Assembly (NCBI RefSeq): GCF_016859125.1
Contig: NZ_CP069338.1
Coordinates: forward strand, 11,101,501-11,165,500
Length of the DNA: 64,000 bases
Direction: 5' to 3'
From: Archangium violaceum
GTDB taxonomy: Bacteria; Myxococcota; Myxococcia; Myxococcales; Myxococcaceae
Below are positions 500 to 20,455 of the stretch, one piece after another. Positions within the stretch are counted from its first letter, which is position 1; every line of letters starts with the position of its first letter. Both the position numbers and the translations under genes were made by a program. The notes beneath the pieces were generated by a model, which was given only the letters and a program-made list of their open reading frames with translations, did no database searches and was not told the origin of the DNA.

Positions 500-507
500 G
501 AGCAACC

Positions 508-1263: not shown

Positions 1264-1535
1264 GTTTCGATCGCAACCTGACGCCCCGCTGGCGTCTCGG
1301 CTATCGGTTCCAGTACGAGCCGGCCCAGAAAGGTCACGTCCTGCTCTATCCTGAAGGAATGATCAAGCTCAACGAGAGCGCCGCCGCCATCGGCGGTCTG
1401 ATCAACGGCGCCCGCTCCGTGCAGGCGATCATCGACGAGCTGGACCAGCGGTACCCCGGCGTCCCCGAGCTCGGTGAAGACGTCGAGCAATTCATGGAGG
1501 TCGCCCGTGCAAAGCACTGGATCGAACTTGGCTGA
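1260..1535 (+). CDS. pqqD: PqqD, PqqA-binding RiPP recognition element
   Basis: This 91-residue protein of normal length is the peptide chaperone that binds the precursor peptide PqqA and presents it to the radical SAM enzyme PqqE. The sequence starts [20 protein letters not shown] and contains the typical [15 protein letters not shown] strand region followed by the winged-helix part. Its ATG overlaps the pqqC stop. The downstream pqqE start lies inside its last 29 bases, so the three genes are tightly coupled. No pqqA is visible because the window begins inside pqqB. Confidence 0.95.
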
Positions 1536-5188: not shown

Positions 5189-6484
5189 ATGATCGTGACC
5201 AAGAAACTGACGCGTTCCTGGGTCGTTCCATTCGCCCTCCTGGGCCTGGCTGGATGTGCCAAGCCCGGTTCCGACGAAGCGCCCGCTCCCGCTTCCGAGG
5301 ACGCTCACGCGACGGCGTGGGTGCCCGGGACGCCGGTGCCCGCCCAGGCGCACGCCGAGGGAACGGAGCACACGATGGAGATGGACTGGATCCGCCGGGA
5401 CGGTTCGATCGATGACCTGACCGACCACTCGGCGTTGATCGTCAGCGGCCGGGTGGAGTCCACGCGCTACGACGTCGTCCGCGCCTGGGCGCAGTCCAAG
5501 GTGGAGGGGCAGCCCACCGGACCGGAGAGCGGCATCTACTCCGACCTTCCGGTGACCATCGCGACCGTGCGGATCGGCGACATCGCGCGCTCCTCGCAGG
5601 AGCTCAAGACCGCCTCGGGCGGCACGGTGGCGCAGGGCTCCACCGTGGAGATCATGTTCCCGGGCGGTCTGCTCTCCGACGGATGCACGATCGCGCCGCA
5701 GGACAGCTCGCTGCCGGCGGTGGGCGCGCAGGCGGTCTTCTTCCTCGTCCCGCAGGGGGGCACCGCGCCCCTGGCCACGCGCTCCATGGAGGGCATCTAC
5801 TCCGTGACCGGCGGCCCGCTGGGCCAGTTCCAGGTGAAGGACGGCCTCATCCAGGACGCGGGCTCGCAGCGTCACGCCGCCGCGACCGAGGGATACGCCG
5901 GCAAGCCGGTCAGCGCGCTGCTCGAGCGGGTCGCGTCCCGCGCGAAGGCCGTCCAGTACCTGGGTCCCGACCTGCCCAAGCTGGCCATGTTGGATGAGCG
6001 CCCCTCGCAGGGGCCGTCCGCCCAGAGCTGGTGCGGGGTTCCGTACTTCGCCCACAAGTGGTGCCGCAAGCCCACGAACATCACCTTCACGGACTACTCC
6101 AGCTCGAAGTGGCCCGTCGGCGACGGCATGAACGAGTGGATGTACAACAACTACAACAACAGCCTGTATCTCTACTGGCGCTCCAGCGGCACGTCCGACG
6201 TCATGGTGTACGAGGCCAATTACGGCGCCAACGGTTGGTACGGGTACGCGACCTACAACGCCGCCAGCTCTACCTGCATTGCGAACGCCACCATCAAGTT
6301 GAACACCTACTACTACTCGGGCTGGCACTACGGGAAGACGGTCTCGACCCACGAGATCGGGCACGTCCTCGGTCTCAATCACCACAAGGATTGCAACTCG
6401 ATCATGTATTACAACCCCACCGCGTGTGCGGCCAACATCACGACCTGCGACATGCAGGCGGTGGCGGAGCGCTATCCGTACTGA
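5189..6484 (+). CDS. Exported metzincin-type zinc metalloprotease (lipoprotein)
   Basis: The protein is 431 residues from ATG 5189; the upstream extension to 4895 runs through the transposase remnant and is rejected. Residues 1-23 are a lipoprotein signal ending LLGLAGC with lipobox Cys23, predicting an anchored or surface-exposed product. [12 protein letters not shown] at about 388-399 is the metzincin zinc site (three His, catalytic Glu), followed by SIMYYN as the Met-turn, so the C-terminal half is matrixin-like. The N-terminal half is a myxobacterial-style prodomain of unknown fold. Intact, probably a predatory or nutritional protease. Confidence 0.85.
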
Positions 6485-7392: not shown

Positions 7393-8325
7393 ATGCGTTC
7401 ACGTTTGCTGGCGGTAGTGGCGATGTCCGGGCTGTGGGTGGGATGTGGCGGCACGGCGGCCGAAGCGCTCAACAAGTACAAGGCGGCCTCCCTCTCCTCC
7501 GAGGCCGATGTGAAGTTGTGGGCGCAGAGGGCCAGCGCGCCCAACATCTACGCCAGTGCCAACGTCGCGGTGGCGCTCGTGGGCCTGCTGGGTGGTTCGA
7601 ACGGACAGGATCCCAACTGCCCGGTCGTGGCGAAGGACGGCAACACCACGCGCTTCACCGGAGGCTGCACCGACACGAACGGGGTGGAGTGGTTCGGCTC
7701 GATGGAGCAGGTGGGCGAGGGCGAGGACACCGGGACCGCCCTCATCACCTATGACGGTTTCGGCTATCAGAAGGCGATCACCGCCTGTGAAGCCTCGGGC
7801 GGCAAGACCAAGCTCATCTTCCACGGCACCAGCAAGATGACCGGCAGCAAGTCGAAGAGGGACTTCGAGATCGACATCCGCCTGGAGGCCTCCGGGCAGT
7901 CGGAGAGTTCCTGCACGCCCATCTCCGCCACCTCGGCCTGGGAGTACAAGGGGAACGTCGACGGGGCGGACACCTCCTTCGGCGATGGAAGGCAGACCTG
8001 GAACGGCTCGGGCCGCATCGGCGACAGCCAGTCCGGTGTGATCGAGGTGGAGACGAAGGCGGAGGTGGTGGATGGCTCGGTGTGCGACTCCGAGGCGGCC
8101 TCGGGCAGCACCACCGTCAAATCGGGCGGTCACACCGCCGTCATCCAGTACGATGGCGCGACGGACTGCGAGGACTCCAGCACCGTGCAGTGGAGCCTCG
8201 ATGGGAAGGCCTCGGCGGAGATGGAAGGCGTCCGCTGCTCGGCCGCCAGTGGCCCCGCCTTCTCGGCGTGGAGCCTGGCCCTGCTCGGCGCGCTGGGGTT
8301 GATGCGCCGCCGCGCCCGGCGCTGA
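7393..8325 (+). CDS. Exported protein with lipobox and MYXO-CTERM-like C-terminal sorting signal
   Basis: The protein is 310 residues with AAGGAG at 7382. It starts MRSRLLAVVAMSGLWVGCGG, a signal peptide with a lipobox-like cysteine. It ends in a hydrophobic helix and arginine cluster (FSAWSLALLGALGLMRRRAR) preceded by a Cys (VRCSAASG), the layout of MYXO-CTERM sorting tails that are processed at the myxobacterial surface. The middle has six or more paired cysteines and no family I recognise. Bases 7765-8325 are repeated almost exactly at 25050-25610. Confidence 0.8.
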   Translation: MRSRLLAVVAMSGLWVGCGGTAAEALNKYKAASLSSEADVKLWAQRASAPNIYASANVAVALVGLLGGSNGQDPNCPVVAKDGNTTRFTGGCTDTNGVEWFGSMEQVGEGEDTGTALITYDGFGYQKAITACEASGGKTKLIFHGTSKMTGSKSKRDFEIDIRLEASGQSESSCTPISATSAWEYKGNVDGADTSFGDGRQTWNGSGRIGDSQSGVIEVETKAEVVDGSVCDSEAASGSTTVKSGGHTAVIQYDGATDCEDSSTVQWSLDGKASAEMEGVRCSAASGPAFSAWSLALLGALGLMRRRARR

Positions 8326-8769
8326 GCCCCGCCGCTTCCCGGCTCACGCCTCCGGAGTGGGTCCCTTCGCCGCCGGGACCCCCGGATAATCCAGCGCGGG
8401 ACTCTCGATGGTCTGGTTCATTCAGGGGACCAGCTCTCCCGCGAGCAGGGGCGGAGCCGGGGCTGGAGGAGGAGAGCCCAGCCATTGCCGCGACGGAGGA
8501 GGAGCCGAGGAAGGAGCGCACACCCCGTTTGGACCAGGCCGGGCTGCTGCGCCGCGTGGTGTTGAGGCTCGAGCCACCCCAGCCAAGAGAGCCAGGTCCC
8601 TGCCGCGCACCTCCTGGGAGCGCGGCCAGGGCCGGCGTGTACCCCAACGGGCTGCGCGGCCTGTCCACCGGCCGGGCTCACTGCTCGGGCGGCCCCGTCA
8701 GCGGCCCTGCTCGGCTCCTCCGCTCCAGTCCACCACCTCTCAACAGGCCTTCAATCCTTCCTATGCTCT
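7765..8769 (+). repeat. 1,005-bp direct repeat, left copy
   Basis: Bases 7765-8769 match 25050-26054 at a constant offset of 17,285. The only difference I noticed is C7782 versus T25067. The repeat covers the last 60 percent of the exported-protein gene plus 444 bp downstream. It ends exactly at the CTATGCTCT that closes the dispersed GC-rich repeat. Near identity means a recent duplication or strong gene conversion. The 437-bp gap from 8326 to 8762 lies entirely inside it. Confidence 0.95.
8632..8769. repeat. Dispersed GC-rich repeat, copy 1
   Basis: The sequence beginning GGCGTGTACCCCAACGGGCT and ending near CAATCCTTCCTATGC recurs, diverged, at 57605-57741 and, as a shorter piece, at 45278-45385; 25917-26054 is an exact copy inside the large repeat. 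It could be the tail of a decayed transposase or a non-coding interspersed repeat. Its right edge is the exact right edge of the 1,005-bp duplication. Confidence 0.6.
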
Positions 8770-9065
8770 CCGCCTTCGAGTTGACGGGCAGCATTCGGGA
8801 GGTGGGGCGACTCGGTATGCAGTACTCCAACAGCGACACCGTCGCACACAGCGACATGGCTGGAGGCGGCTCGGTGACTTTCCGCAACCGCCTTCCCGCG
8901 ACGCCCTCCTCCATTACGTTTTCGCCCTCGGCCAACAGCGGCAGCTTCGTCGGAAACCCCACCCTCTTCCTTCCGGACAGGGACGGCTTCGCCTTCTACA
9001 GCTTCCAGACTGTGCCAGCCCTCGGCGCCGCTTACTGGTTCGGCACCTACACCGCCGTTGTGTGA
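8763..9065 (+). CDS. Small phage-tail-like protein, probably 5'-truncated
   Basis: The protein is 100 residues from ATG 8763, which lies in the last bases of the 1,005-bp repeat. The true N-terminus may therefore have been replaced. The sequence (SDMAGGGSVTFRNRLPATPS, ITFSPS, FAFYSFQTVPALGAAYWFG) is rich in short beta-strand patterns like the C-terminal domains of phage tail-associated proteins. That is an impression, not a family match. It is followed 8 bp later by the next small gene, suggesting one transcription unit. Confidence 0.4.
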   Translation: MLSAFELTGSIREVGRLGMQYSNSDTVAHSDMAGGGSVTFRNRLPATPSSITFSPSANSGSFVGNPTLFLPDRDGFAFYSFQTVPALGAAYWFGTYTAVV

Positions 9066-9072
9066 GAACACC

Positions 9073-9507
9073 ATGGCCATTCACGAAGTCACCCAGGAAG
9101 AAGCCCTCCAGCGCTGCGCCCGGTGCGGTAGCGACAACCGCCTCTCGCTGAAGTCGTTGGAGGTTGGCGTCGCCCGTGACGGGCACGTCGACGCGGACAT
9201 TCTCCCGCTGCCGCCATGCACCCAGTGCCGCTCCACCGAATTCCTCATTCGCTCCGGCGAAGAAGAGGGGGCGCACCTGGCGCCGGGCAGCTTCGGCCAC
9301 CTGCACCGCCTCCTCGTCAACCACCTCCATGCTGAGTTGGTGCAGCGGGGCCGCGTCATTCCGGCCCCGCGGGCCAAGGCCCTCGCTGGCACCGTCCTCC
9401 CGCGCCCCGTCCCCCGGGGCGTCCTGGCGCGCTGGTTTCCGAAAGGACTGCGAATAGAGGCACCCCATGTAGAGAAAACCCCCAACCCAGGCGCACCCTC
9501 CGAATAG
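9073..9507 (+). CDS. Hypothetical zinc-ribbon-like protein
   Basis: The protein is 144 residues. Two CxxC pairs, CARC at residues 15-18 and CTQC at about 49-52, frame 30 residues as in a zinc ribbon. The rest is proline- and arginine-rich with no recognised domain. It lies 8 bp after the preceding small gene on the same strand. It is part of the accessory cluster of short genes at 8763-15370. Function unknown. Confidence 0.55.
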   Translation: MAIHEVTQEEALQRCARCGSDNRLSLKSLEVGVARDGHVDADILPLPPCTQCRSTEFLIRSGEEEGAHLAPGSFGHLHRLLVNHLHAELVQRGRVIPAPRAKALAGTVLPRPVPRGVLARWFPKGLRIEAPHVEKTPNPGAPSE

Positions 9508-9546
9508 CCGGGCGCGACTTCGAGGCGCAATTCGCACTCCGCCGAG

Positions 9547-9576
9547 TTGCTATTGCGGCCGAGGAGAGCGTGTATG
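9547..9576 (+). promoter_or_regulatory. Conserved promoter-like cassette, copy A
   Basis: TTGC starts at 9547 and AGAGCGTGTATG ends at 9576, exactly 30 bases, the same geometry as copies B, C and D. It stands 39 bp before the ATG at 9616. The leader that follows contains CCTTGC...GCAAGG, a potential 6-bp hairpin. TTGC could be a -35 element and TGTATG a -10 element at 18-bp spacing. Confidence 0.6.
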
Positions 9577-9615
9577 TCCTTGCACGCAGCGCCACCCCAG
9601 CAAGGAGACGCACTC

Positions 9616-9909
9616 ATGGTTATTGGCACCATTACCACCTACCTCGGCGACGAAATTCCCGGCCTCCAGGGCGCGAAAGTCTGCATTTTCGCGGTGCTTC
9701 GCGGCGCAGTCCGGCCAGACGTCGACGTCGACGCGGAGGACTTCTACGTGAATGAGGACGCCACGCTGGCGCGACTGGGCGGCGTCACCGCCGAGGACTG
9801 CGTTGACGTCGCGCCCCTTCGCGCGGACGGCAGCACCAGCTTCGTCCACGTCGCCCCGCGCGCCGTCGACTTGGAGTGCTTCACGGGTTTGAAGACAGGC
9901 GCGCAATGA
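9616..9909 (+). CDS. Small hypothetical accessory protein
   Basis: The protein is 97 residues, ATG 9616 preceded by AAGGAGA. It is acidic, starting MVIGTITTYLGDEIPGLQGA and ending with an LECFTGLKTGAQ tail. No signal peptide, membrane segment or known motif. It is expressed from cassette A. The stop is followed within a few bases by cassette B for the next gene, so these short genes appear to have individual promoters. Function unknown. Confidence 0.6.
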   Translation: MVIGTITTYLGDEIPGLQGAKVCIFAVLRGAVRPDVDVDAEDFYVNEDATLARLGGVTAEDCVDVAPLRADGSTSFVHVAPRAVDLECFTGLKTGAQ

Positions 9910-9910
9910 C

Positions 9911-9940
9911 TTGCCATGCGCCCGAAGTAGAGCGTGTATG
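9911..9940 (+). promoter_or_regulatory. Conserved promoter-like cassette, copy B
   Basis: TTGCCATG at 9911 to AGAGCGTGTATG at 9940, 30 bases. It is 42 bp before the ATG at 9983. Its leader holds GCGCGCC...GGCGCGC, another potential hairpin. It directly abuts the stop of the preceding gene. Confidence 0.6.
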
Positions 9941-9982
9941 CCCCTCGCGCGCCTCACCCCGGAAGGCGCGCGGACGGAAGCC

Positions 9983-10225
9983 ATGACGAAACACCCCATG
10001 CGCCACACGCCAGCCCAGGGCAGCGGCAAACGCCCTGTCGCCCCTGAAGTCCTTGAAGCCACCGTTGAGCGCATTGGGCGCGAAGTGCTGCACCTCGAGA
10101 CATTGAAGACGCGCCGCGCGGACAGCCTCGACTTCCATGAGCTTGCGGTGTGGAGGGTGAGAGACGCCCTCGAAGAGGCCTTCCGCGCCGGCATGCGCGC
10201 CGCCACGGATTCACGCGGCAAGTAG
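9983..10225 (+). CDS. DUF6900-like small protein
   Basis: The protein is 80 residues. The C-terminal half (TLKTRRADSLDFHELAVWRV followed by RDALEEAFRAG) resembles the DUF6900 pattern, a single small helical domain found in accessory regions and on phages or plasmids. The N-terminal 20 residues are basic and low-complexity. The start at 9983 is the first ATG after cassette B. Role unknown; the setting is a cluster of similarly sized accessory genes. Confidence 0.6.
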   Translation: MTKHPMRHTPAQGSGKRPVAPEVLEATVERIGREVLHLETLKTRRADSLDFHELAVWRVRDALEEAFRAGMRAATDSRGK

Positions 10226-10347
10226 GCGCCCCACTGGAGTGACAGCCCCTGCCCCGCGCGGGGCGCAACCCGACATGGGGGCTTCCGGGCCGCCCTCGTG
10301 GACGGGAGACGTGTACCCAAGGCCCGACACGGAAAGAAGCCACAGCC

Positions 10348-10881
10348 ATGCCCCGTACCACCCGAGTGAAGCAGAAGAAGCAGCAGGCCGCCGCCACCCG
10401 GAAACGCTCGCCTTCGAGGAAGGCCGCCAGCGCCAGCCGCGCTCCGGCCACGCCTCCCGCCGCGCGGCGCGAGGCCAACGCCGCGCCTGCGGAGAGCGCC
10501 ACCGCCGAGACGACACCGCCCACGAAGCGCGGGCGCTTCGCGGGCATGAGTGTTGCCGAGTTGCAGGCGAAGTACCGCGAAGTCGTCGGCCGCCCGACTG
10601 GAAGCACCCACCCCGCCTACCTTCAGTGGAAGATTCGGGAGGCGGAGGCTGGCCGGATTCCGGTGGGCCCGCGCCCGCAGCGCGAGGTGAAGCCCAGCGC
10701 CACCGGCAAGCGCGTCATTCCCCTCTCCTTCGACGAGAAGGCCCTGGAGGCCCTGGACAAGGCCTGGCGCAACGCGGGCATGCCCAGCCGGACGCACTTC
10801 TTCCGGCGCGCGGTGCGCCACTACCTCACCGAAATGGGCGCCACCGAGGCCGCCGCCTTCTTCGCCTCGGACGCGGAGTGA
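10348..10881 (+). CDS. Basic protein with C-terminal ribbon-helix-helix-like domain
   Basis: The protein is 177 residues. The first 70 are a lysine/alanine/arginine-rich tail (KQKKQQAAATRKRSPSRKAA) that would bind DNA or RNA nonspecifically. A central block has GMSVAELQAKYREVVGRPTG, reminiscent of DUF2924-type mobile-element proteins. Residues about 128-168 (RVIPLSFDEKALEALDKAWR, then AGMPSRTHFFRRAVRHYL) look like a ribbon-helix-helix DNA-binding fold. Possibly a regulator or partition-type protein of the element. Intact. Confidence 0.6.
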   Translation: MPRTTRVKQKKQQAAATRKRSPSRKAASASRAPATPPAARREANAAPAESATAETTPPTKRGRFAGMSVAELQAKYREVVGRPTGSTHPAYLQWKIREAEAGRIPVGPRPQREVKPSATGKRVIPLSFDEKALEALDKAWRNAGMPSRTHFFRRAVRHYLTEMGATEAAAFFASDAE

Positions 10882-10891
10882 GGGGGCGGCC

Positions 10892-11076
10892 ATGACGACA
10901 CGGCAATCTGGCCCGGAAGCACCGGTGGCTGAGGCCCTCCGCAAGGCGCTCGCAGGTGCGCGGGTGGACGTGAAGCTGGCGCTTTCCAGCTGTGGCACCG
11001 AGCTGCAGCCCGAAGCCGAAGTCTTCTTCCCCAGGGGCACCCACGTGCGGCAGCGGAATGCGGCCCTCCTTCTGCT
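10892..11076 (+). pseudogene. 5' half of a small accessory gene split by an IS21-family element
   Basis: ATG 10892 opens a frame (MTTRQSGPEAPVAEALRKAL, ending RQRNAALLLL) interrupted after 11076 by the IS. Joining base 11076 to 14270, which removes the IS and one TTCTGCT copy, restores an uninterrupted frame ending at 14447. The rebuilt protein of about 121 residues is a paralogue of the next gene at 14551-14904: both share an L.L.L start, a P-rich strand, [39 protein letters not shown] and GRVYL/GRLYL. Confidence 0.85.
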
Positions 11077-11332
11077 TGTCGATGATCACCGAGAAGCGCG
11101 GGAATTTGGACGAGCCGAGCGTGGCGGCCTGAAACTGGCGGGCAGAGGTAGGAGGAGGTAGCGCAGAGAGCCGGGACGAGGGCGCCAAAAAGAAGAGGGC
11201 CCGGAGCTGGTACCTCCGGACCCTCAGGCCGAATCACGGGGACGCGATGCGGGAGGAGCACGCTCGCACGAGGCCGTGAGGCGGTCCAGTTTCCAGGCGT
11301 CTCGAGCCTGGGGACGCGTGGATTCACTGCGG

Positions 11333-11869
11333 ATGGCGCAGTGCGCGCTCGGCACCTGCCGGGCACTCTTCTACCTGTGCCGTCGGCACGACCGGGGCCA
11401 GCGCTACTGCTCGCGTGAGTGTAGTGCGCAGGCGCGCCGCCAGAGCCAGAGGGAGTCGGGGCGACGCTACGCTCGCGGCTTCGCGGGCCGGTGGGCCGCG
11501 GCCAGGCGCCAGGCCCGGAGCCGTGAGCGGCGAGCACGGAAAGTCACGCATCAGGGTAGCCCGCCGCTGGAGGGCGCGGGCACCTTGGCGCCGCCGACGC
11601 CAGAGGTCGCCCTGGAGGCCACCACTTTTCGCGTCGGCCAGGAGCCGACTGATGCGGACAGAGGGAAGAGAAGGACACCGGGCGAGTGCCCGGTGCCGAG
11701 GCGGACGAGGGACGGGCTGGCGAGGGCGCTGTGGCGAGCGTGCGAGCCCCTGCCAGTGCCGGGAGCGGTGCACGCTGCGCGGTGTGCGGATGCCGTGCGG
11801 ACTTCGTCCGTCATGGGCCCTGGGAGCCACGCCCCGGGCCCCGGGCCAGGAGGGCGCCATGGTGACTGA
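11333..11869 (+). CDS. IS21-associated accessory protein with cysteine-rich N-terminus
   Basis: The protein is 178 residues from ATG 11333. The N-terminal 80 residues (MAQCALGTCRALFYLCRRHD, then RGQRYCSRECSAQARR) carry five or more cysteines in CxxxxC/CxxxC spacing. A long basic helix with repeated R..YAR..AGR and KVTHQG follows. I recognise this type as a short gene often preceding istA in some IS elements. The C-terminal part is low-complexity and may be a run-on. It overlaps istA by 11 bases, so it is co-expressed. Possibly a regulatory or targeting factor; role not established here. Confidence 0.55.
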   Translation: MAQCALGTCRALFYLCRRHDRGQRYCSRECSAQARRQSQRESGRRYARGFAGRWAAARRQARSRERRARKVTHQGSPPLEGAGTLAPPTPEVALEATTFRVGQEPTDADRGKRRTPGECPVPRRTRDGLARALWRACEPLPVPGAVHAARCADAVRTSSVMGPGSHAPGPGPGGRHGD

Positions 11870-13350
11870 CGAGCAGCGCGCCCGCATCCGCCGCCTCTAC
11901 TTCGCCGAGCACTGGAAGGTGGGCACCATCGCCGCCGAGCTGGGCGTGCACCACGACACCGTGAGGGGAGCCCTGGAGGTGGAGCGCTTCGTGCGCACCA
12001 CCGCCCGGGTGAGGCCCACCATGCTTGACCCCTACCGGGATTTGATTGCCCAGACACTGGCGCAGCACCCCAAGCTGCGCGCCACGCGCTTGTACGAGAT
12101 GCTCCGTGCTCGCGGCTACCAGGGCAGCGCCCTCCAGGTGCGGCGCTACGTGGCCCGGCACCGGCCGGTGTCCTCGGCCGAGGCCTACTTGCGGCTGTCC
12201 ACGCTGCCGGGTGAGCAGGCCCAGGTGGACTGGGCCCACTTCGGCCGGCTGCGCATTGGCGGGGCCGAGCGCCCCCTGTGCGCCTTCGTCCTGGTGCTCT
12301 CCAGGACGAATCGCCCTCTACGCGCGCTTCGTCCTGGAGCAGTCCCTGGAGAGCTTCCTGCGCTGCCACACCCTGGCCTTCCAGGCGCTGGGCGGGGTGC
12401 CGCGCTCCCTGTTGTATGACAATTTGAAGAGCGTGGTGTTGGAGCGCGTGGGCGACCACATCCGCTTCCACCCCAAGCTGCTGGAATTCGCCGGCCACTA
12501 CCACTTCGCTCCCAAGCCCTGCGCCCCCTACCGCGGCAACGAGAAGGGCAAGGTGGAGCGCTCCATCCACTACCTGCGCCACTCCTTCTTCGCCGCACGT
12601 ACCTACTCCTCGCTGGATGACCTCAACTCCCAGCTGTCGCGCTGGATTGAGGACACCGCCCACGCACGCCCCCTCCCACAGGACACCTCGCGCCGCGTGC
12701 ACCAGGCCCTGGAGGAGGAGCGGCCCCGACTGCTTCCCCTGCCAGGGAATGCCTTCGGCTGCGACGTGGTGCGCACCCTCCACAGCGGCAAGACGCCCTA
12801 CGTCCGCTTCGACGGCAACGACTACTCCATTCCCCACACCCTGGTGACAAAACCTCTCACCCTGGTGGCCAGCGACTCGCTGGTGCGCCTGCTGGATGGC
12901 ACCCGGGAGGTGGCCCGCCACACGCGCTGCTGGGACAAGGGCAAGACTCTCGAATGCGAGGAGCACCTGGCCGCCCTCGCCGCCCACAAGCGCCACGCCC
13001 ACGAGCTGCGCGGACGCGACAGGCTGCGCCAGTCCTGCCCCAGCGCCGACGCCTTCATCGCCGTGCTCGCCTCGCGTAACGCCCACCTCGCAGGCCATAC
13101 CTCGCGCCTGCTCAAGCTGCTCGACGCCCATGGCCCCGAGGCCCTCGAGTCCGCCCTGTCCACCGCGCTCTCTCGCGGTGCCATCGGCGCCGAGTCCGTC
13201 GCCCACCTCCTGGAGCACTCCCGCCGCCAGCAGCACCTGCCTCCCGTCCTCTCAGTCTCCCTCCCCGACGACCCCCGCGTGCGCTCTGCCCGCGTCCAGC
13301 CCCACTCCCTCTCCGACTACGACGCCCTCTTGCGAAAGGACTCCCCGTGA
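11859..13350 (+). pseudogene. istA: IS21 transposase IstA, frameshifted
   Basis: ATG 11859 begins an IstA helix-turn-helix (MVTDEQRARIRRLYFAEHWK, then GTIAAELGVHHDTVR). The frame runs to QVDWAHFG, with the first catalytic Asp, and AFVLVLS. Near 12300-12312 the reading frame changes by +1 and continues RIALYARFVLEQSLESF. The rest has LLYDNLKSVV (second Asp) and GNEKGKVERS (catalytic Glu). All DDE residues are present but no single frame joins them, so the protein is inactive unless ribosomes shift. It overlaps istB by 4 bases. Confidence 0.9.
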
Positions 13351-14111
13351 CTTCCTCCCTGGCTCATTCCCTCTCCGGGCTCGGCCTGCACCGCACCAGC
13401 GCCGAGCTCGATGACCTCGTCGCTCGCGCCACCAAGGCCCGCCTCTCTCCCACCCAGCTGCTGGAGCAGATTGTCCAACTGGAGTCCGACGAGCGCGCCC
13501 GCCGCTCCCTGGAGCGCCGCACCCTGCGCAGCCGCCTGGGCCGCTTCAAGCCCATGGCCGACTTCGACTGGAGCTGGCCCAAGTCCATAGACAGGCCCCT
13601 GGTGGAGAGCCTGCTGCGTCTGGACTTCCTCCAGGACGCTCGCAACGTCGTGCTGCTCGCCGCCCAGGGCCTGGGCAAGACGATGATTGCCCAGAACCTC
13701 GCTCACGAGGCCCTGCGCTCCGGCCACTCCGTCCTCTTCACCACCGCCTCCCAGCTGCTACTCGACCTCGGCTCGCGCGACTCTTCCCGCGCCTTGGAGT
13801 CCCGCCTGCGCCACTACGCTCGCGTGGGCCTGCTCATCATCGACGAGCTGGGCTACCTCTCCTACGACGCGCGCAACGCCGACCTCCTCTTCCAACTCGT
13901 CAACTTGCGCTATGAGAAACGCAGCCTCGTCCTCACCACCAATCAGGCCTTCAGCGACTGGCCTACCATCTTCCCCAACGCCAGCTGCGCCACCGCCCTC
14001 ATCGACCGCGTCATCCACCACTGCGACATCGTCTCCATAGAGGGCGACAGCTACCGCCGCCGCGAAGCCGAAGCCTCTCTGGAGTCTCGCCGCTCCCGCC
14101 GCTCCGGCTGA
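13347..14111 (+). CDS. istB: IS21 helper ATPase IstB
   Basis: The protein is 254 residues from GTG 13347, which overlaps the istA TGA. IstB is an AAA+ ATPase that selects target DNA and activates the transposase. Walker A is AAQGLGKT at residues 105-112, lacking the usual first glycine (G..G.GKT). Walker B is LLIIDELGY, and sensor I is LVLTTNQAFSDW. Full length and intact, so it could serve other IS21 copies in trans. Confidence 0.93.
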   Translation: MTSSLAHSLSGLGLHRTSAELDDLVARATKARLSPTQLLEQIVQLESDERARRSLERRTLRSRLGRFKPMADFDWSWPKSIDRPLVESLLRLDFLQDARNVVLLAAQGLGKTMIAQNLAHEALRSGHSVLFTTASQLLLDLGSRDSSRALESRLRHYARVGLLIIDELGYLSYDARNADLLFQLVNLRYEKRSLVLTTNQAFSDWPTIFPNASCATALIDRVIHHCDIVSIEGDSYRRREAEASLESRRSRRSG

Positions 14112-14115
14112 CGCC

Positions 14116-14183
14116 CTGGGGGACTACATCCCCCAGTCCCCCTGTGGCTCCGCTCCGGCCCGCACCCAACTGCGGTGCGGGCC
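14116..14183 (+). terminator. Tandem hairpins after istB
   Basis: CTGGGGG (14116-14122) pairs with CCCCCAG (14130-14136). A second, 10-bp perfect stem GGCCCGCACC (14157-14166) pairs with GGTGCGGGCC (14174-14183). Both lie between the istB stop and the IS right end. There is no U-tract, but they could end IS transcription or block read-in from outside. Confidence 0.5.
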
Positions 14184-14269
14184 TCCTCGGAGCGCGAGCC
14201 CGCCGCTCCTCGCCCCCAAACCGGCTGGTTCATTTTCCCGCGCTTCTTCATGTTCAGCGACATTCTGCT

Positions 14270-14447
14270 CGCCTCCCGTGTGGAGTTACTCACGCCGGTG
14301 CAGGACCATTGGCTCGTCGAAACGGAAGTCTTGGACGACGGCAACAGCGGCCGCGTCTACCTCGTATTGCTCGGCGTGGGCGGCCCTCGGCCTATTCGCG
14401 ACGAGGCTGAGCGCGGGTTGAAGGTGCTCCGCGACGCCCTCGGCTGA
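14270..14447 (+). pseudogene. 3' half of the accessory gene split by the IS21-family element
   Basis: After the right-hand TTCTGCT copy the frame reads ASRVELLTPVQDHWLVETEV and ends at TGA 14445-14447. It is the continuation of the fragment at 10892-11076. Without the IS the gene would be about 366 bp. The alignment of this half with residues about 75-117 of the protein at 14551 is clear (WLV..E.LD....GR.YL.L..G). Confidence 0.85.
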
Positions 14448-14470
14448 CGCAGCAAGGTCTTCTATTCGAC

Positions 14471-14500
14471 TTGCCATGCCTTCAAAGCAGAGCGCGTATG
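14471..14500 (+). promoter_or_regulatory. Conserved promoter-like cassette, copy C
   Basis: TTGCCATG at 14471 to AGAGCGCGTATG at 14500, again 30 bases. The 34-base leader that follows (CCTTTCGCGACGGGC, then AAGCCCCGCGCAAAC) is nearly identical to that of copy D and can form GGGC-N6-GCCC. The ATG of the next gene is at 14551. Confidence 0.65.
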
Positions 14501-14550
14501 CCTTTCGCGACGGGCACCAAAGCCCCGCGCAAACCCACGAGAAATCAGAC

Positions 14551-14904
14551 ATGGACGACACCAACAACCCACCCCTCGCCTGGTCCCGAAACGTTGCTGG
14601 AATGACGCTGATTGAGCTTCGAGAGGCCACTCTGTCGCTCACCCTCTCTCAGAGCCGACATGGCGTCCCGCAGCCACAACTGGAGGTCATCCTCCCAGCC
14701 AGCGCCGTGCACCGGCAGCTGCGTGCGGCGCTCCACGCCTTTTCCGCAAGCCTCGAGCTCGCCACTCCCGCCAGTGAGCGTTGGCTGGTGCAGATGGAAA
14801 TCCTCGATGCACCAAGGCGAGGCCGCCTCTATCTCGAATTGGCCGAGGGGAGCCACCCCGAGGCGATGCGCGGGCTGATGCTTCTCCACACCCTCATGGG
14901 CTGA
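14551..14904 (+). CDS. Small accessory protein, paralogue of the IS-split gene
   Basis: The protein is 117 residues from ATG 14551; an upstream in-frame ATG at 14476 lies inside the promoter-like cassette and is rejected. No known domain. It is an alpha/beta-looking protein with repeated leucine strands ([35 protein letters not shown]). The paralogy with the gene interrupted at 11077 shows an in-situ duplication in this accessory cluster. It is followed by a strong hairpin at 14914. Confidence 0.65.
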
Positions 14905-14913
14905 CTGGAGGCA

Positions 14914-14956
14914 GGGCGAATGCCGCCCGCAGCCCGCGCGCGGCCGGCATTCGCCC
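14914..14956 (+). terminator. Strong stem-loop after the small accessory gene
   Basis: GGGCGAATGCCG (14914-14925) pairs perfectly over 12 bp with CGGCATTCGCCC (14945-14956), with a 19-base loop, ten bases after the stop at 14904. It is a probable transcription terminator separating this unit from cassette D. Confidence 0.6.
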
Positions 14957-15106
14957 GCCCATGGGGCTCCACCTGGGCGGGTTTCGGCCAACGTGCCGAC
15001 AATTCTCCCGCGCAGCCGCCGCCCGAGCCCTGCGCCCTGTGAAACCCCGCGGATTCTCGGGCCTATTTTTGACACGAAATCCACCCATTGGCTTACCAGT
15101 CAGGAC

Positions 15107-15136
15107 TTGCTTCACCCGCGCACCAGAGCGTGTATG
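15107..15136 (+). promoter_or_regulatory. Conserved promoter-like cassette, copy D
   Basis: TTGCTTCA at 15107 to AGAGCGTGTATG at 15136, 30 bases. The leader matches that of copy C for about 34 bases with three or four changes. The next ATG is at 15185. Confidence 0.65.
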
Positions 15137-15184
15137 CCTTTCGCGACGGGCGCTGAAGCCCCGCGCAAACGCGAGAGGCGAAAT

Positions 15185-15370
15185 ATGAAGACGCTCCGGT
15201 TTGGAATCGAAATCGAAACGGTGGGCATTTCCCGGGAGAAGCTGGCGCGCGCCATTCACGGCGTGGTGGACGGGCAGGTGCAGGCGGACTACCGAGGTGC
15301 CCAGGTAACGGACACCCAGGGCCGCGTTTGGAGGGTGGTGCCGGACGCCTCCCTCAGCGGGCAGGATTGA
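15185..15370 (+). pseudogene. N-terminal stub of an amidoligase-type gene, cut by an ISAs1-family element
   Basis: ATG 15185 opens [20 protein letters not shown], with [20 protein letters not shown] further on, the typical N-terminus of amidoligase_2 (glutamine-synthetase-fold, ATP-grasp-associated) proteins of phages and accessory islands. The natural frame ends at DASLSG, where the IS starts (15362); only two more codons follow. About 60 of 250-300 residues survive. Expression would come from cassette D. Confidence 0.7.
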
Positions 15371-17043
15371 TCCAAAGTCCGTAGGAGAGGTTTTGAAGAG
15401 GCGGAGAGCAAGTCCAGACATTCACAGGCAAAGAGGGAGCATCCCTCCGGACGGCGCCTGAAAGAGGGGCGCCGTGGAAGGACAGGAGTGAAGGTACACA
15501 GGCCGAACAGCCAGGGGAGAAGAGGCGCGGGAAGGCCGGAGCGGGAGCAGCTGGCGGGCGCTCAGGCAAGTGTGGCCAGACTCTCGGGCAGCACGGCCAG
15601 ACCCAACAGGCCCTGGTAGAGCACCTCCATGGTGCGTGCGAAGCTTTGGGGCCGTTTGTCGCGAGTCGGCAGGTGCGTGCGCACCAGGGCCAGCAGGTTG
15701 TAGGCCAGCAAACGCAGCCAGCTGAGTACCAGGGGTGCATTGCCTCGCAGGCTGGGCGAGGCGCTGTCCTCCTCCAGCACCACGTCCGCTGTCCAGTTGG
15801 GCCCGTTCTCAATCCCCCAGTGCCGGCGTACCAACGTCAGCATCCGCTCCGGGGACAGTTGCCCTGTGGGAATGGAGGTGAGGAACAGCCGCGTCTCCAC
15901 CTTCGGCAGCTCGCCGTCTCTGGTTCGCGTCTGCCTCACCCATACCCATTGCTGGGCGCCGGGAAAGTCCTCCTCTGGCGGCTTGTCCACCACCCTCAAC
16001 TCCCTCTCCACCCACTCCCCGCTCGTCCGCTCGCGCGTGCGCACCTTCACTGGCGCCACCGCCAGCGCCACCCACGCCTTGTCATGTAGCCGGTGGAAGT
16101 TCTCCTTGAGCGCCATCAGGTAGTGCTTGCCCGCCTCCCTCACCACCCGCGCATTGGCCGCGCTCGTCATTCCCGCGTCCACTGTCACGTACTCGAAATG
16201 CCGCCCGAACTTCTCCACCACCCGTTTGAACAACTCCGGGAACGCCGTCGCCTCTCCCTGCTTGCCTTCCAGCAACTTCTGGTCGAGCACCGGCTGGGCC
16301 GCGCTGCTGGTGAGACTGGCGCGCAGCGCGTACGGGTACCAGTACTCCCGCCCCTGCTCATCCTTCGTCGTGTGGCTCGGCTCGCACGGCGGCTGCCCCG
16401 GCGTGCTCTCCCCTGCCTTCCCGTCAATGCTGACGACGCCCCGGGCGAAGAGCTCATGGCGTATCAGCCCCACTTCCAGGCCTCGGTGCACCATCTGGTG
16501 CACCTCCTGCTCCAACCCCTCTGGCTCCAACTTCCCCAGCAGCCTATCCAACGTCGTGTCGGACACCGGCCGCTTCAGCCCCTCGGGCGCCGTGCCTTCG
16601 CGCAGCATGTCCTCCCCCAGCGCCTCGGCATGCCTCAACACCCGCCGCCCCACCGCCAGCGCCTGCACCAGCAGCATCAACATCGCCGCCAGCGGGTGCC
16701 TCTGTCCCCGGCGGGCCCGGGGGTCCTTTACCTCCTTGAATGTCAGCCCCAGGCTCGCCATCATCCTCTGCACGCGGGAGGGGGTTTCCTGCTCGTCCTT
16801 CTTCCCCTTCCCGTTTCCCGCTTGGGGGGTGGAGGGCCCGCCAGTCCTCCCGCCCCGGTTTTTCTTCCCACTCATCCTTCTTCTCCCCGGACCTGTCCGG
16901 CCCGTCTCCGGCTCTGTGCTGGCGCTCCCCCTCGCGATCTGCCCGCGGCTGCTCGCCTCCGGTGGGCGCCTGTAGGCGGGACTATACTTCAGCCGTAGGC
17001 CCGGGTGGGATGACCTCTCCCGTGGGACTTTGAATCAAGCCTG
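15362..17043 (-). mobile_element. ISAs1-family insertion sequence (1,682 bp) without target duplication
   Basis: The left end reads CAGGATTGATCCAAAGTCCG, and the right end, read inward, CAGGCTTGATTCAAAGTCCC. GGAGAGGT lies further in on both sides. These are the terminal inverted repeats around an intact transposase gene. The flanks (CCTCAGCGGG on the left, GGACTTTCAG on the right) do not match, so the two sides were not originally adjacent. An adjacent deletion or recombination between copies is the likely cause. Confidence 0.88.
15562..16875 (-). CDS. ISAs1-family transposase
   Basis: The protein is 437 residues, intact. The N-terminus is basic and glycine-rich, followed by the family block DPRARRGQRHPLAAML. 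The DDE residues are visible as D151 (VVSIDGKAGE), D233 (YVTVDAGMTS) and E356 (RRHWGIENG). The C-terminal WTADVVLEEDSASP and NAPLVLSWLR helices are family-typical. It fills the IS at 15362-17043, and no other gene lies in it. Probably still active. Confidence 0.93.
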   Translation of the reverse strand: MSGKKNRGGRTGGPSTPQAGNGKGKKDEQETPSRVQRMMASLGLTFKEVKDPRARRGQRHPLAAMLMLLVQALAVGRRVLRHAEALGEDMLREGTAPEGLKRPVSDTTLDRLLGKLEPEGLEQEVHQMVHRGLEVGLIRHELFARGVVSIDGKAGESTPGQPPCEPSHTTKDEQGREYWYPYALRASLTSSAAQPVLDQKLLEGKQGEATAFPELFKRVVEKFGRHFEYVTVDAGMTSAANARVVREAGKHYLMALKENFHRLHDKAWVALAVAPVKVRTRERTSGEWVERELRVVDKPPEEDFPGAQQWVWVRQTRTRDGELPKVETRLFLTSIPTGQLSPERMLTLVRRHWGIENGPNWTADVVLEEDSASPSLRGNAPLVLSWLRLLAYNLLALVRTHLPTRDKRPQSFARTMEVLYQGLLGLAVLPESLATLA

Positions 17044-18020: not shown

Positions 18021-19316
18021 ATGGTGTTGGAGGACGTGCTGGAAGAGCACCTGGACGAGGCAGCTTTCCGGTGGCTGCAATGGGAGCGAGCCCTGGAGGC
18101 TCCGGACTTCACCCTCTCCGACGTGGCGAGACAGGAGGAGCAGTTGGCGGCGCACCTGCATGGGCTGGTGCTGGGCGGCGCGGAGGCCGCCGACGCCTTG
18201 CTCTGGCCCGCATTGGACTCCGGAGAAGCACCGCGAATCACCGCCGCCGCCTATGTCCTGCTGGCCCAGGGGCACGTCGAGGCCCTCCTCAACTTCATGC
18301 AAGGTGACGCGCTCGAGGCGAGAGCGGCTGTCCGACGCGCGGTGGAGTTGAGTGCGGCCCCCAGCCTGGGTAAGCATCTGCTTCCACTGCTGAAGCGGGA
18401 TGACGTCGCCCTTCAGGCCCAGCTGCTGGAGGCGCTGGCCTTCCGGCAGGAAGCGCCTGCTGAAGTGCTTGCGGAGTCTTTCCTCCACGAGGAGCCGCAG
18501 GCGAGGATGGCGGCGCTACGCGCCAGCCCGCCCCTTCCCGAGGCCACCACGCGCCGGCTCCTCCCCCGACTCCTGGAGTCCGGGCACCCGGGGATTCGTG
18601 CCGCGGCCATGGAGGCCGGCCTGGCCTCGGGCGCGCGAGTGGCCTGGGAGGCCTGCCGTCAGGCGGTGCGCGCGTGCAATGCCCACTCACCCCAGGCCAT
18701 GGTGCTGCTCGCCCTTTTCGGCACCGACGCCGACACGGCCCTGCTGGTGGACATGTTGGGGACTCAGGAGATGCGCCCGCATGCCCTCTGGGCCCTGGGC
18801 TTCAGTGGGCGCCTCGGGGCCATGGAGGCCTGCCTCGCGCTGCTGGAGGACCCCCTGGCGGCACGGCTGGCGGGGGAAGCCTTCTCGGCCATGACGGGCC
18901 TCCAGTTGGAGGGCCTCTATGCCCTCCCTCCCGGGGAGCAACCCGAAGGGGCGCCGCTTCCGCCCGAGCAGCAGGAGGACCTGGATGCGGACCTGGTGCC
19001 CAAACCCGAGGATGACCTGCCCTGGCCGTGCATTGGTGCGGTGAGGTACTGGTGGAAGGAGGCCCGCCCTCGCTTCCATGCGGAGCGGCGCTACCTGAAC
19101 GGCCAGCCCCTTGAGGGGCCCGCACTGCTGGAGGCCCTCACGCACGGCCCCATGCGGCGCCGGCACGTGCTGGCACGCGAGTTGGACATTCGCAGCAAGG
19201 GCCGGTACCGCATTCCCACCCGGGCCTTCACCCACCGCCAATGGGCGGCGCTGGCCCAGGCCCGGGCGGGCTGCGCACACCTGAGCCTTCTGCCCCTGGA
19301 GCGCACGCTGCGCTGA
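18021..19316 (+). CDS. TIGR02270-like HEAT-repeat protein of type VI cargo clusters
   Basis: The protein is 431 residues with GGGGGAAGG before ATG 18021. The sequence is a run of alpha-helical, alanine/leucine-rich repeats (EARAAVRRAVELSAAPSLGK, HPGIRAAAMEAGLASGARVA), as in HEAT-like TIGR02270 proteins that travel with DUF2169 and DUF4150 genes. The conserved C-terminal part has GAVRYWWKEARPRF and RRRHVLARELDIRSKG. It probably acts as a cytoplasmic scaffold or effector adaptor. Intact. Confidence 0.82.
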   Translation: MVLEDVLEEHLDEAAFRWLQWERALEAPDFTLSDVARQEEQLAAHLHGLVLGGAEAADALLWPALDSGEAPRITAAAYVLLAQGHVEALLNFMQGDALEARAAVRRAVELSAAPSLGKHLLPLLKRDDVALQAQLLEALAFRQEAPAEVLAESFLHEEPQARMAALRASPPLPEATTRRLLPRLLESGHPGIRAAAMEAGLASGARVAWEACRQAVRACNAHSPQAMVLLALFGTDADTALLVDMLGTQEMRPHALWALGFSGRLGAMEACLALLEDPLAARLAGEAFSAMTGLQLEGLYALPPGEQPEGAPLPPEQQEDLDADLVPKPEDDLPWPCIGAVRYWWKEARPRFHAERRYLNGQPLEGPALLEALTHGPMRRRHVLARELDIRSKGRYRIPTRAFTHRQWAALAQARAGCAHLSLLPLERTLR

Positions 19317-19330
19317 CGCGAGGAGATGCC

Positions 19331-20455
19331 ATGCAACTCAGCGAGAACACCACGGGCATGTCCGCGGGCCTCACCGTGGCGACGGACGCCCAGGCCCGAG
19401 AGCACTGCGTCGTCGCCGTCAAAGGCACCTTCCGCATGGACGGCCGCGGCGAGCCCCAACTGGCGGACGTGCAACGTCCGGTGGCCTACACGGACGAGCA
19501 CCACGGGGCCCCCGAAATGACGAGCCTCCTCCGGGAGAATGACTTCGCATTGACGAAGCCCCTGGTGGACCTCCTCGTGCAGGGCCACGCCGTCGCACCC
19601 CACGGGCGCGCGACGGAGGCGATGCTGGTGCGCGTGGAGATGCCGGGCCGGCAGAAGGACCTCCGCGTCACGGGGGACCGCTACTGGGACAAGGGGCTGA
19701 TGGGCATGAAGGCCACGCCTCCCAAGCCCTTCGTCCGCATGCCCCTGCGCTACGAGTTCGCCTTCGGTGGAGTGGACACCTCCCACCCCGAGCCGAAGCA
19801 CCACGGCGCGGAGCTGCGCAACCCAGTGGGCAGAGGCTTCCGGCAGAACCCGCGCGCCGCGGATGCGGTGGGGACACCGTTGCCCAACCTGGAGCACCCC
19901 CGGCACTTCCTGGACAGGTGGGATGGGAAGACGGTGCCGGTGGGATTGGGCCCGGTGGGCCGTGGCTGGCAGCCTCGCCTCGCCCACGCCGGCACCTACG
20001 ACGAGCGCTGGCTCGCGGAGGACTACCCCTTCCTTCCTCGGGACTTCAACCCGCGCTACTTCCAGTGCGCGCCCGAGGACCAGCAACTGCCGGCCCTGCG
20101 CGGCGGCGAGGTGTTCCGGTGCCTGGGCCTCACCGAGTCCGGCCCCTGGACGGTGACGCTGCCGCGCCTCCAGGTGCCGGTGGCCTTTCGCTTCCGCGAG
20201 TCCGACGTCAGCGCCGAGGCACGCATGGACACGGTGCTGCTCGACGCGGACGCGCGCGAGGTGGTGGTGACGTGGCGGGCCACCGTGCCGCTGGGCAAGA
20301 AGCTCTCCCACCTTCGCGAGGTGCAGGTGGGCCTGCCCCGCCCGAGCGCGAAGGAAGGGCCGGTGCGGTACCTGCGCGGCAAGCCCTACTTCCGGGGGCT
20401 GGGCGCACTCGTTTCCTGGAGGCGTCGCGCGCCGCGAGCGGGAGGACAGCCATGA
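19331..20455 (+). CDS. DUF2169 type VI secretion adaptor
   Basis: The protein is 374 residues, ATG 19331 after AGGAG. Landmarks of DUF2169 are KGTFRMDG, a GDRYWDKG block, the PLRYEFAFGG segment, NPVGRGF, HPRHFLD..D, and the C-terminal PR....F.F. DUF2169 proteins act as chaperone/adaptors for loading DUF4150-type effectors onto the VgrG spike in the cytoplasm. It overlaps the next gene by 4 bases. Full length. Confidence 0.88.
   Translation: MQLSENTTGMSAGLTVATDAQAREHCVVAVKGTFRMDGRGEPQLADVQRPVAYTDEHHGAPEMTSLLRENDFALTKPLVDLLVQGHAVAPHGRATEAMLVRVEMPGRQKDLRVTGDRYWDKGLMGMKATPPKPFVRMPLRYEFAFGGVDTSHPEPKHHGAELRNPVGRGFRQNPRAADAVGTPLPNLEHPRHFLDRWDGKTVPVGLGPVGRGWQPRLAHAGTYDERWLAEDYPFLPRDFNPRYFQCAPEDQQLPALRGGEVFRCLGLTESGPWTVTLPRLQVPVAFRFRESDVSAEARMDTVLLDADAREVVVTWRATVPLGKKLSHLREVQVGLPRPSAKEGPVRYLRGKPYFRGLGALVSWRRRAPRAGGQP

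What the first reader, a model, noticed from the sequence alone, without database searches (positions are those of the whole stretch)
9547..15136. Four copies of a 30-bp promoter-like cassette in front of small accessory genes
TTGC[CT]-N15-AGAGCG[TC]GTATG occurs at 9547, 9911, 14471 and 15107, always 30 bases long and 38-50 bp before a start codon. Each is followed by a leader able to form a hairpin; leaders C and D are nearly identical over 34 bases. This looks like a dedicated shared control system for an accessory gene set (phage- or ICE-type regulon).
Basis: seen in the sequence. Interest (0 to 1): 0.65.

Follow-up and report, generated by a model that had tools for sequence, protein, structure and literature searches.

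The report
Phage-specific promoter cassette in myxobacteria
A 30-letter control sequence is repeated in front of small accessory genes and a recombinase gene of a family of viruses that live inside myxobacterial chromosomes, and its spelling follows the virus lineage rather than the host, which points to a virus-encoded switch.

Summary
The 12-base core occurs 4 times in the 12.68-Mb genome, all here. The 16-base pattern occurs in 18 of 96 family genomes (reversed control: none) and in 0 of 49 genomes of other families of the order. It belongs to a temperate contractile-tail prophage family with a large serine integrase. It precedes accessory genes (amidoligase, DUF6900, unnamed small families) and a 204-aa tyrosine-recombinase-like gene. 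The window holds a decayed remnant damaged by two insertion sequences. Upstream of 42 recombinase homologues found by protein, 33 have the relaxed pattern within 1 mismatch; other genes: 0 of 292. Sister prophages carry own variants (AGAGCG / GAAGCC / GAAGCG), mostly shared between distant loci of one element or genome; two variants occur in the same host genera. Best reading: an element-specific promoter/operator read by an element-encoded factor, perhaps the recombinase-like protein, as MrpR reads SPBRE in SPbeta. Promoter activity and the factor are inferred. Leader hairpins are not a conserved part.

The parts
9547..9576 (+). cassette A, TTGC-N14-AGAGCGTGTATG, 39 bp before the start of the 97-aa gene
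9911..9940 (+). cassette B, 42 bp before the start of the DUF6900 gene
14471..14500 (+). cassette C, 50 bp before the start of the 117-aa gene
15107..15136 (+). cassette D, 48 bp before the start of the amidoligase gene fragment
8769..9059 (+). C-terminal remnant of the prophage tail-fibre-like protein (residues 539-635 of 636)
   Evidence: tblastn, 73% identity; the tail-fibre label rests on weak Pfam and PHROGs hits of a relative
9073..9507 (+). 144-aa protein with two Cys-x2-Cys pairs, last gene of the late module before the first cassette; no Pfam match of its own
9616..9909 (+). 97-aa gene under cassette A ('VIG' family, my label); in 19 of 96 family genomes
9983..10225 (+). 80-aa gene under cassette B, PF21841 DUF6900
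10348..10881 (+). 177-aa protein with C-terminal ribbon-helix-helix domain (PF01402), no cassette of its own; candidate regulator
10892..11077 (+). 5' half (residues 1-62) of a 120-aa accessory gene, interrupted
12046..14111 (+). IS21-type insertion (Mu-type transposase C domain/rve ORF 12046-13350 and IstB 13347-14111) inside the 120-aa gene; outer ends of the insertion not mapped
14262..14441 (+). 3' half (residues 60-119) of the interrupted 120-aa gene
14551..14904 (+). 117-aa gene under cassette C ('DFSN' paralogue family, my label)
15185..15370 (+). first 61 codons of the amidoligase gene (PF12224, profile positions 1-60 of 245) under cassette D; no further match of the relative's amidoligase in the window
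15562..16875 (-). DDE_Tnp_1 transposase gene of the insertion sequence beside the truncated amidoligase

Best explanation
The cassette is an element-specific promoter/operator of a family of temperate, contractile-tailed prophages of Myxococcaceae. SHOWN: the exact pattern is confined to these elements and their remnants in the genomes searched; it lies in the gene's orientation before gene starts (7-53 bp); it marks two places in lineages A, B and C, a 204-aa tyrosine-recombinase-like gene and an accessory gene set behind the tail genes; its discriminating bases differ between prophage lineages, are shared by the two places in most cases where both were read, and follow the prophage rather than the host genus. 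INFERRED: it starts transcription of the gene behind it (TTGC near -35, GTATG near -10, start about 7 bases on); its specificity is set by an element-encoded DNA-binding protein; that protein is perhaps the recombinase-like protein, whose own gene carries the cassette and which would then regulate itself as MrpR-type repressors do, and otherwise the ribbon-helix-helix protein encoded inside the accessory set. In clade C a single cassette heads the accessory operon; in the lineage of this window many of the accessory genes have their own. The window copy is a decayed remnant.
For: 18 of 96 family genomes carry the exact pattern, reversed-pattern control 0 in all 96; 0 of 49 genomes of other families of the order. 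All 15 genomes with a close copy (>=76%) of the prophage sheath protein carry it. 122 of 136 collected sites precede one of eight gene families (sorted by a crude rule on protein start and length), 6 another ORF, 8 none. Recombinase-like homologues found by protein, 42 of 44 rows read: relaxed pattern with 0 mismatches in 13, <=1 in 33, <=2 in 36, <=3 in 41; 10 of these had been found through the pattern and sat in the 11-row query; of the 31 not in the query, 23, 26 and 30 have it within 1, 2 and 3. Other genes of prophage and host loci: 0 of 292 at <=1 and at <=2, after setting aside 2 true cassette genes that my filter had missed; known cassette families were filtered out beforehand. Lineage variants AGAGCG (A), GAAGCC (B), GAAGCG (C); in both B genomes (G028, G072) and in two of three C genomes with both loci read (in G090 on two contigs), the same bases stand at both loci; A and B both occur in host genera g5 and g19. 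In clade C the divergent terminase and recombinase starts are 50 bp apart with the cassette filling 30 of them (L294: 5460/5511, cassette 5474-5503). Own genome: only 5 sites at <=1 mismatch, all in elements. Spacer bases differ between loci while both ends are constant, which argues against copying of whole cassettes.
Against: No transcription start is mapped. There is no sigma-70-like hexamer pair in 9400-15400, and 18 of 42 recombinase-gene cassettes read GCATG for GTATG, odd for a -10 element. No sigma factor or polymerase was seen among 25 of 53 Pfam families shown; 28 were not shown, so an element sigma factor is not excluded. G088 has discordant bases at its two loci and the second element of the own genome is only partly concordant. 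G076 has 12 sites in the tally but no recombinase homologue at E<=1e-50 in its draft assembly. One recombinase homologue has no cassette-like sequence and five only at 3 mismatches. Relaxed-pattern sites also turned up in four genomes without the element: at one position in three genomes of genus g5, overlapping the start of a lipase-like gene (label recalled), and inside a gene in G032; reversed control in the same search: four genomes with one match each.
Confidence: 0.62

Rival explanations
1. Host-read moron promoter: a promoter for a host sigma factor, kept similar by selection for strong expression, with no element-encoded factor.
For: Position of the accessory genes behind the tail genes is typical of morons (recalled); -35-like TTG and a 24-25 bp distance to GTATG.
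Against: Lineage-specific bases shared by distant loci in most cases, and two variants within the same host genera; no host sites at <=1 mismatch in the own genome and chance-level ones in genomes without the element; no sigma-70-like hits.
Confidence: 0.2
2. RNA-level element: the core and the following leader act in the mRNA, as a stabilising 5' hairpin or a translation-start signal.
For: Three of the four window leaders fold better than most shuffles; mean z (mononucleotide shuffles) -2.4 and -2.0 in two of eight gene families, -1.6 in a third (one of the 23 rows of the first family was a 3-mismatch chance site); own 5'/3' leader halves pair slightly better than swapped ones, 3.8% of permutations reach it.
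Against: Hairpins are weak or absent in the other five families, mean z -1.1 to +0.3; the distance to the start codon ranges from 7 to 53, and in four clade-C genomes only 7 bases separate cassette and ATG, leaving no leader to fold; no Rfam family reached its gathering score.
Confidence: 0.07
3. Recombination site: the cassettes are recognition sites of the 204-aa tyrosine recombinase, so that accessory genes are gained or duplicated as site-plus-gene units, integron-like.
For: The recombinase keeps five catalytic residues in 11 of 11 rows; its own gene carries a site in lineages A, B and C; tandem site-plus-gene units with related genes are seen (L086, L090, L091, L083).
Against: Gene order is conserved in the four loci listed in full, not shuffled; several accessory genes have no site; the core is not palindromic and lies 5', not 3', of genes.
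Confidence: 0.06
4. Start of a short regulatory leader peptide at the ATG that ends the cassette.
For: The core ends in ATG with AGAG five bases upstream.
Against: Stops occur in the cassette frame in 4 of 101 leaders against 7 and 2 in the other frames; the distance to the gene start is not frame-constrained (43/29/29); one site has ATA, and 18 of 42 recombinase sites keep ATG while two end in ATT.
Confidence: 0.02

Closest known systems
SPBRE element and its repressor MrpR, Bacillus subtilis prophage SPbeta (PMC10516654; passages seen, abstract among them)
   Same: Short repeated element in many promoter regions of one prophage; the prophage excises by a serine recombinase; a separate protein of the tyrosine-recombinase fold exists and, in SPbeta, binds the element.
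   Different: MrpR has lost several catalytic residues and has a core-binding domain; the protein here is catalytic-domain sized and keeps R, K, H, R and Y. Binding has not been shown here. Hosts are Myxococcaceae; the two elements' sequences were not compared.
Start-associated sequences (SAS/ESAS) of cluster K mycobacteriophages (PMC3203893; passages seen)
   Same: Asymmetric repeated element before many non-structural phage genes, mostly one orientation, no exact copy in the host genome; the consensus of the ESAS repeats differs between subclusters.
   Different: SAS lies typically 3-7 bp before the start codon and contains the AGGAG core of the Shine-Dalgarno sequence; the cassette lies 7-53 bp away, is 30 bp with two blocks, and points to transcription.
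Prophage moron loci (recalled; start of the abstract of PMC7067206 seen in a search listing)
   Same: Accessory genes inserted beside late genes with their own start signals.
   Different: Here one dedicated cassette is shared by many genes; the only + strand terminator-like sites in 9400-15400 lie inside the insertion sequence.
Promoters of T7-like phages with lineage-specific polymerase (recalled)
   Same: Repeated phage promoters whose bases diverge in step with a trans-acting factor.
   Different: No phage-type RNA polymerase was identified in the part of the family lists shown; the cassette is bipartite.

Membership tests
Sigma-70-type promoter | TTGACA, 16-18 bp, TATAAT-like hexamers | tested here: not met
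   0 sites in window 9400-15400
SPBRE/MrpR-type prophage regulon | Repeated element upstream of several genes of one prophage, absent elsewhere in the genome | tested here: met
SPBRE/MrpR-type prophage regulon | Element bound by a tyrosine-recombinase-fold repressor of the same prophage | not testable with these tools
   Such a protein is encoded and carries the element before its own gene; binding unknown
SPBRE/MrpR-type prophage regulon | That protein has lost catalytic residues | tested here: not met
   R48, K77, H152, R155, Y187 invariant in 11 of 11 rows; only the sixth position is Gln in clade A (residue roles recalled)
Cluster K start-associated sequence | 3-7 bp before the start codon, containing the Shine-Dalgarno core | tested here: not met
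   Distances 28-53 in clade A families, 7 in four clade-C genomes; AGGAG is not in the core
Prophage (element identity) | Integrase, terminase, portal, tail tube, baseplate | tested here: met
   Serine integrase, terminase, portal, gp19 tube, baseplate J in relative G062. The window itself holds only the remnant.
Integrative conjugative element | Conjugation genes | tested here: inconclusive
   None among the 25 of 53 Pfam families shown; virion genes are present
Moron | Own promoter and terminator, expressed in lysogeny | tested here: inconclusive
   Placement fits; no terminator-like site after the genes in the window; expression not testable
Integron | Exchangeable gene-plus-site units with variable order | tested here: not met
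   Order conserved in the four loci listed in full

The most novel reading that the evidence does not exclude
The 30-bp cassette is at once a promoter and the working site of the small tyrosine recombinase, so that this prophage lineage gathers and multiplies accessory genes as ready-to-express promoter-plus-gene units, a promoter-carrying counterpart of integron cassettes, with the recombinase under the same promoter.
Probability: 0.06. Interest if true: 0.85.

Novelty: new variant of a known kind. Interest (0 to 1): 0.5.

Why it matters
It would give an element-specific transcription switch for a group of temperate myxobacterial phages of which no isolate was found in the phage collection searched, with three natural specificity variants that make the factor testable by simple swaps. 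It also suggests a route from one operon promoter towards one promoter per gene, and puts phage amidoligase genes, whose role in phages is open as far as I know, under a defined control element.

Tried and rejected
Reading the core's ATG as a leader-peptide start: no frame signal. Conserved leader hairpin: per-family consensus folds disagree, and one lineage has no leader. Rfam: nothing at gathering score in 9000-15600; one chance-level match at E 0.69. Sigma-54 reading (GG-N10-GC) by eye on three of the four sites (B, C, D): spacing does not fit. Phage isolates: no megablast match of window 8000-16900, no tblastn match of the sheath protein or the 97-aa protein in 50,697 phage records; the amidoligase matches 75 records, all under 60% identity. 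Anti-phage defence models: 0 of 10 element proteins matched. Structure of the Cys-pair protein: mean pLDDT 53, not used. Structure of the 117-aa gene family: pLDDT 82.7, no PDB match at E<=0.001. PDB sequence search of the RHH protein: three weak hits, the relevant one 7by2 CopG at E 0.31. Co-variation of the RHH beta-strand with the lineage variants: the strand differs between clade A and the others but does not sort all variants, so it is not used as evidence. Pattern scans of public collections: of 159 stretches, 127 have no homologue of the ten element proteins used as queries and are taken as chance matches; 9 have one weak amidoligase or recombinase hit (27-52% identity); 23 carry the element. 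Literature: Myxococcus + prophage + amidoligase, 0 papers; Myxococcus + prophage + 'repeated promoter', 0; prophages + Corallococcus + Myxococcus + 'serine recombinase', 0; this covers only the held open-access library.
Full report
OBSERVATION. Against 100 dinucleotide shuffles the number of near matches is far above chance (5 against a mean of 0.26). In the whole 12.68-Mb genome the 12-base core is found four times, all four inside these 5.6 kb. With one mismatch allowed in the 16 fixed bases a fifth copy appears at 12,606,513; it lies in a second copy of the same kind of element. At up to three mismatches there are 129 matches against 93 for the reversed pattern, and several of the listed ones are copies of one unrelated repeat, so I see no host regulon at this stringency.

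WHERE ELSE. The 16-base pattern occurs in 18 of 96 genomes of the family, while the reversed pattern gives none in any of them. In the order search (145 genomes) the same 18 match and none of the 49 genomes of other families does. Named records with the element include Myxococcus xanthus AM003, M. llanfair... AM401, Myxococcus sp. CA023, M. qinghaiensis, M. dinghuensis, Corallococcus praedator, C. carmarthensis and Citreicoccus inhibens. Of 159 stretches from the two collection scans, 23 carry the element, 9 have one weak amidoligase or recombinase hit and 127 neither. In the viral collection, stretches of three predicted proviruses (2894385450_000001, 2898165748_000002, 2833787475_000001) carry the element's genes beside the cassettes.

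WHAT THE ELEMENT IS. In relative G062 the surroundings hold a large serine integrase (PF00239, PF07508), portal, terminase, gp19-type tail tube, minor tail protein, baseplate J and hub proteins, in other words a temperate contractile-tailed prophage. Behind the tail-fibre-like gene and a protein with two Cys pairs comes the accessory set: a 97-98-aa gene, a 74-80-aa gene (DUF6900 in the window), a DUF2924/ribbon-helix-helix gene, a family of related ~100-120-aa genes, an amidoligase (PF12224) and two gamma-glutamyl cyclotransferase-like genes. In the window this set is a remnant. The end of the fibre gene is at 8769-9059; an IS21-type element splits the 120-aa gene (10892-11077 and 14262-14441); the amidoligase is cut after 61 codons, with a transposase gene of another IS beside it. 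No match of the sheath or of the 97-98-aa protein was found among 50,697 phage records.

WHICH GENES CARRY IT. I collected 142 sites from the fetched loci: 95 exact, 36 with one mismatch, 11 with two or three near an exact one. Of the 136 used further (6 with three mismatches dropped), 122 precede a member of eight gene families, sorted by a crude rule on protein start and length, 6 another ORF and 8 none; distances to the start codon are nearly constant within a family and range from 28 to 53 over the families. Sites with two mismatches entered that count only if an ORF followed, so the count leans towards genes; those with none or one mismatch did not need one. Bases outside the search pattern are conserved as well: G, A, C in front of TTGC (83, 83, 96%) and C, T after GTATG (76, 87% at positions 32 and 33). 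The fixed bases themselves are inflated by the search. The spacer differs between loci.

A TEST THROUGH THE PROTEIN. I searched the 96 genomes with the 204-aa recombinase-like family (26 genomes) and read upstream of 42 of the 44 matches: 13 have the relaxed pattern exactly, 33 within one mismatch, 36 within two, 41 within three, 1 none. Ten of these had been found through the pattern and sat in the 11-row query alignment; of the 31 not in the query 23, 26 and 30 have it within one, two and three mismatches, and a few of those had also been seen earlier by pattern. In the 28 clade-A rows the distance is 28 in every case. In the control 294 other genes of prophage and host loci were read (known cassette families filtered out beforehand); two matched within one mismatch and both proved to be true cassette genes that my filter had missed, leaving 0 of 292. 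So the link with this gene is a property of the gene, not of the search.

SPECIFICITY FOLLOWS THE ELEMENT. More distant prophages (sheath 55-60% identical) have their own spelling: GAAGCCTGTATG in G028 and G072, GAAGCGTGTATG in G009 and genus g26, AGAGCCTGTATG in the second element of this genome. At the recombinase gene the discriminating bases are those of AGAGCG in 25 of 28 clade-A rows, of GAAGCC in both B genomes and of GAAGCG in clade C (G009, G089, G090, G092 and one of two rows of G093), the same as in the accessory set where that was read. Exceptions: both G062 recombinase sites have C for the first base, one G064 site has A for the sixth, scattered single changes occur in accessory sites, G088 is discordant, and the second element of this genome agrees at one of three positions. 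The accessory sites of B and C were found with a pattern that allows only R, R and S at the discriminating positions, so their range is restricted by the search; the recombinase sites of B were read without that restriction. In G090 the two loci lie on different contigs. Clades A and B both occur in host genera g5 and g19. A purely host-read promoter has no reason to behave so, and copying of whole cassettes is unlikely because the spacers differ. With the relaxed pattern 31 of 96 genomes match; four of these have no sign of the element (one match each), and the reversed control has one match in each of four genomes.

WHY A PROMOTER/OPERATOR. Two conserved blocks a fixed 14 bases apart (one natural case with 13), the same orientation as the gene, and a variable distance to the start fit a transcription signal. 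In clade C (L294) the recombinase gene and the divergent terminase gene are 50 bp apart and the cassette fills 30 of these, with only 7 bases to the recombinase ATG; a start at that ATG would be leaderless. No sigma-70-like pair is found in the window region, and GCATG replaces GTATG at 18 of 42 recombinase sites, so recognition is probably not by the ordinary host factor alone.

EVOLUTION. In the clade-C loci read (L284, L295), one cassette heads a tight accessory operon and another the recombinase gene; in clade B three and five accessory sites were counted in the two genomes, in clade A up to eight in one contig (G075:C27). That suggests growth from one promoter per operon towards one per gene; the direction is inferred, no tree was made.

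WHICH FACTOR. Candidates encoded by the elements are the recombinase-like protein (self-marked by the cassette; five catalytic residues kept in all 11 rows, the sixth Gln in clade A and His in clade C) and the DUF2924/RHH protein inside the accessory set (28 of 96 genomes). MrpR of SPbeta, a protein of the tyrosine-recombinase fold that binds a repeated element in a serine-integrase prophage, is the nearest precedent (PMC10516654, passages seen). Against the recombinase: G076 has 12 sites and no homologue at E<=1e-50 in a draft assembly. I put about 0.35 on the recombinase-like protein and 0.25 on the RHH protein; both numbers are judgement.

KNOWN OR NEW. The kind (a phage-specific repeated control element) is known; SPBRE and the mycobacteriophage SAS are the nearest, and neither membership test is fully met. 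I found nothing in print on this element in the searches, which cover only the held open-access library.

Noticed in passing
own genome C1:12,540,001-12,610,000 (L334, L335, L272): A second, more complete copy of this prophage type (serine-recombinase-like, terminase-like, capsid- and tail-like genes by resemblance to G062, not searched one by one), with the recombinase-like gene under a variant cassette and an accessory set in which only an eroded gene follows the one cassette found.
   Followed up: partly
window 18021-22616 and L087:4648-9310: A cluster of similar-looking genes (431-aa protein, DUF2169-like, PAAR/DUF4150-like; labels recalled, likeness judged by eye) follows the accessory set both here and in G075, suggesting a shared neighbourhood of prophage and a type VI-related locus.
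   Followed up: no
window 137-2670: Genes that look like pqqB-pqqC-pqqD-pqqE (labels from recall, not searched).
   Followed up: no
L255 (G061:C394) 729-2747: The recombinase-like gene and the accessory set stand about 1 kb apart, divergent, with the late genes missing between them and only the end of the Cys-pair protein left: it looks like a deletion of the virion genes that keeps both cassette loci.
   Followed up: partly
L087:15203-15518 and L089:2057-2372: A 79-aa gene (MKIKS...) with its own cassette lies several kb beyond the accessory set; a homologue with a clade-B cassette is inside the set in L282:6382-6621.
   Followed up: partly
L098:11191-12624: A group II intron-type reverse transcriptase/maturase (PF00078, PF08388) sits near the recombinase-like gene in the G062 prophage.
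   Followed up: no
G043 contigs C57 and C30: Three diverged recombinase-like homologues in one genome, two of them with weakly cassette-like upstream sequence (3 mismatches), one without.
   Followed up: no
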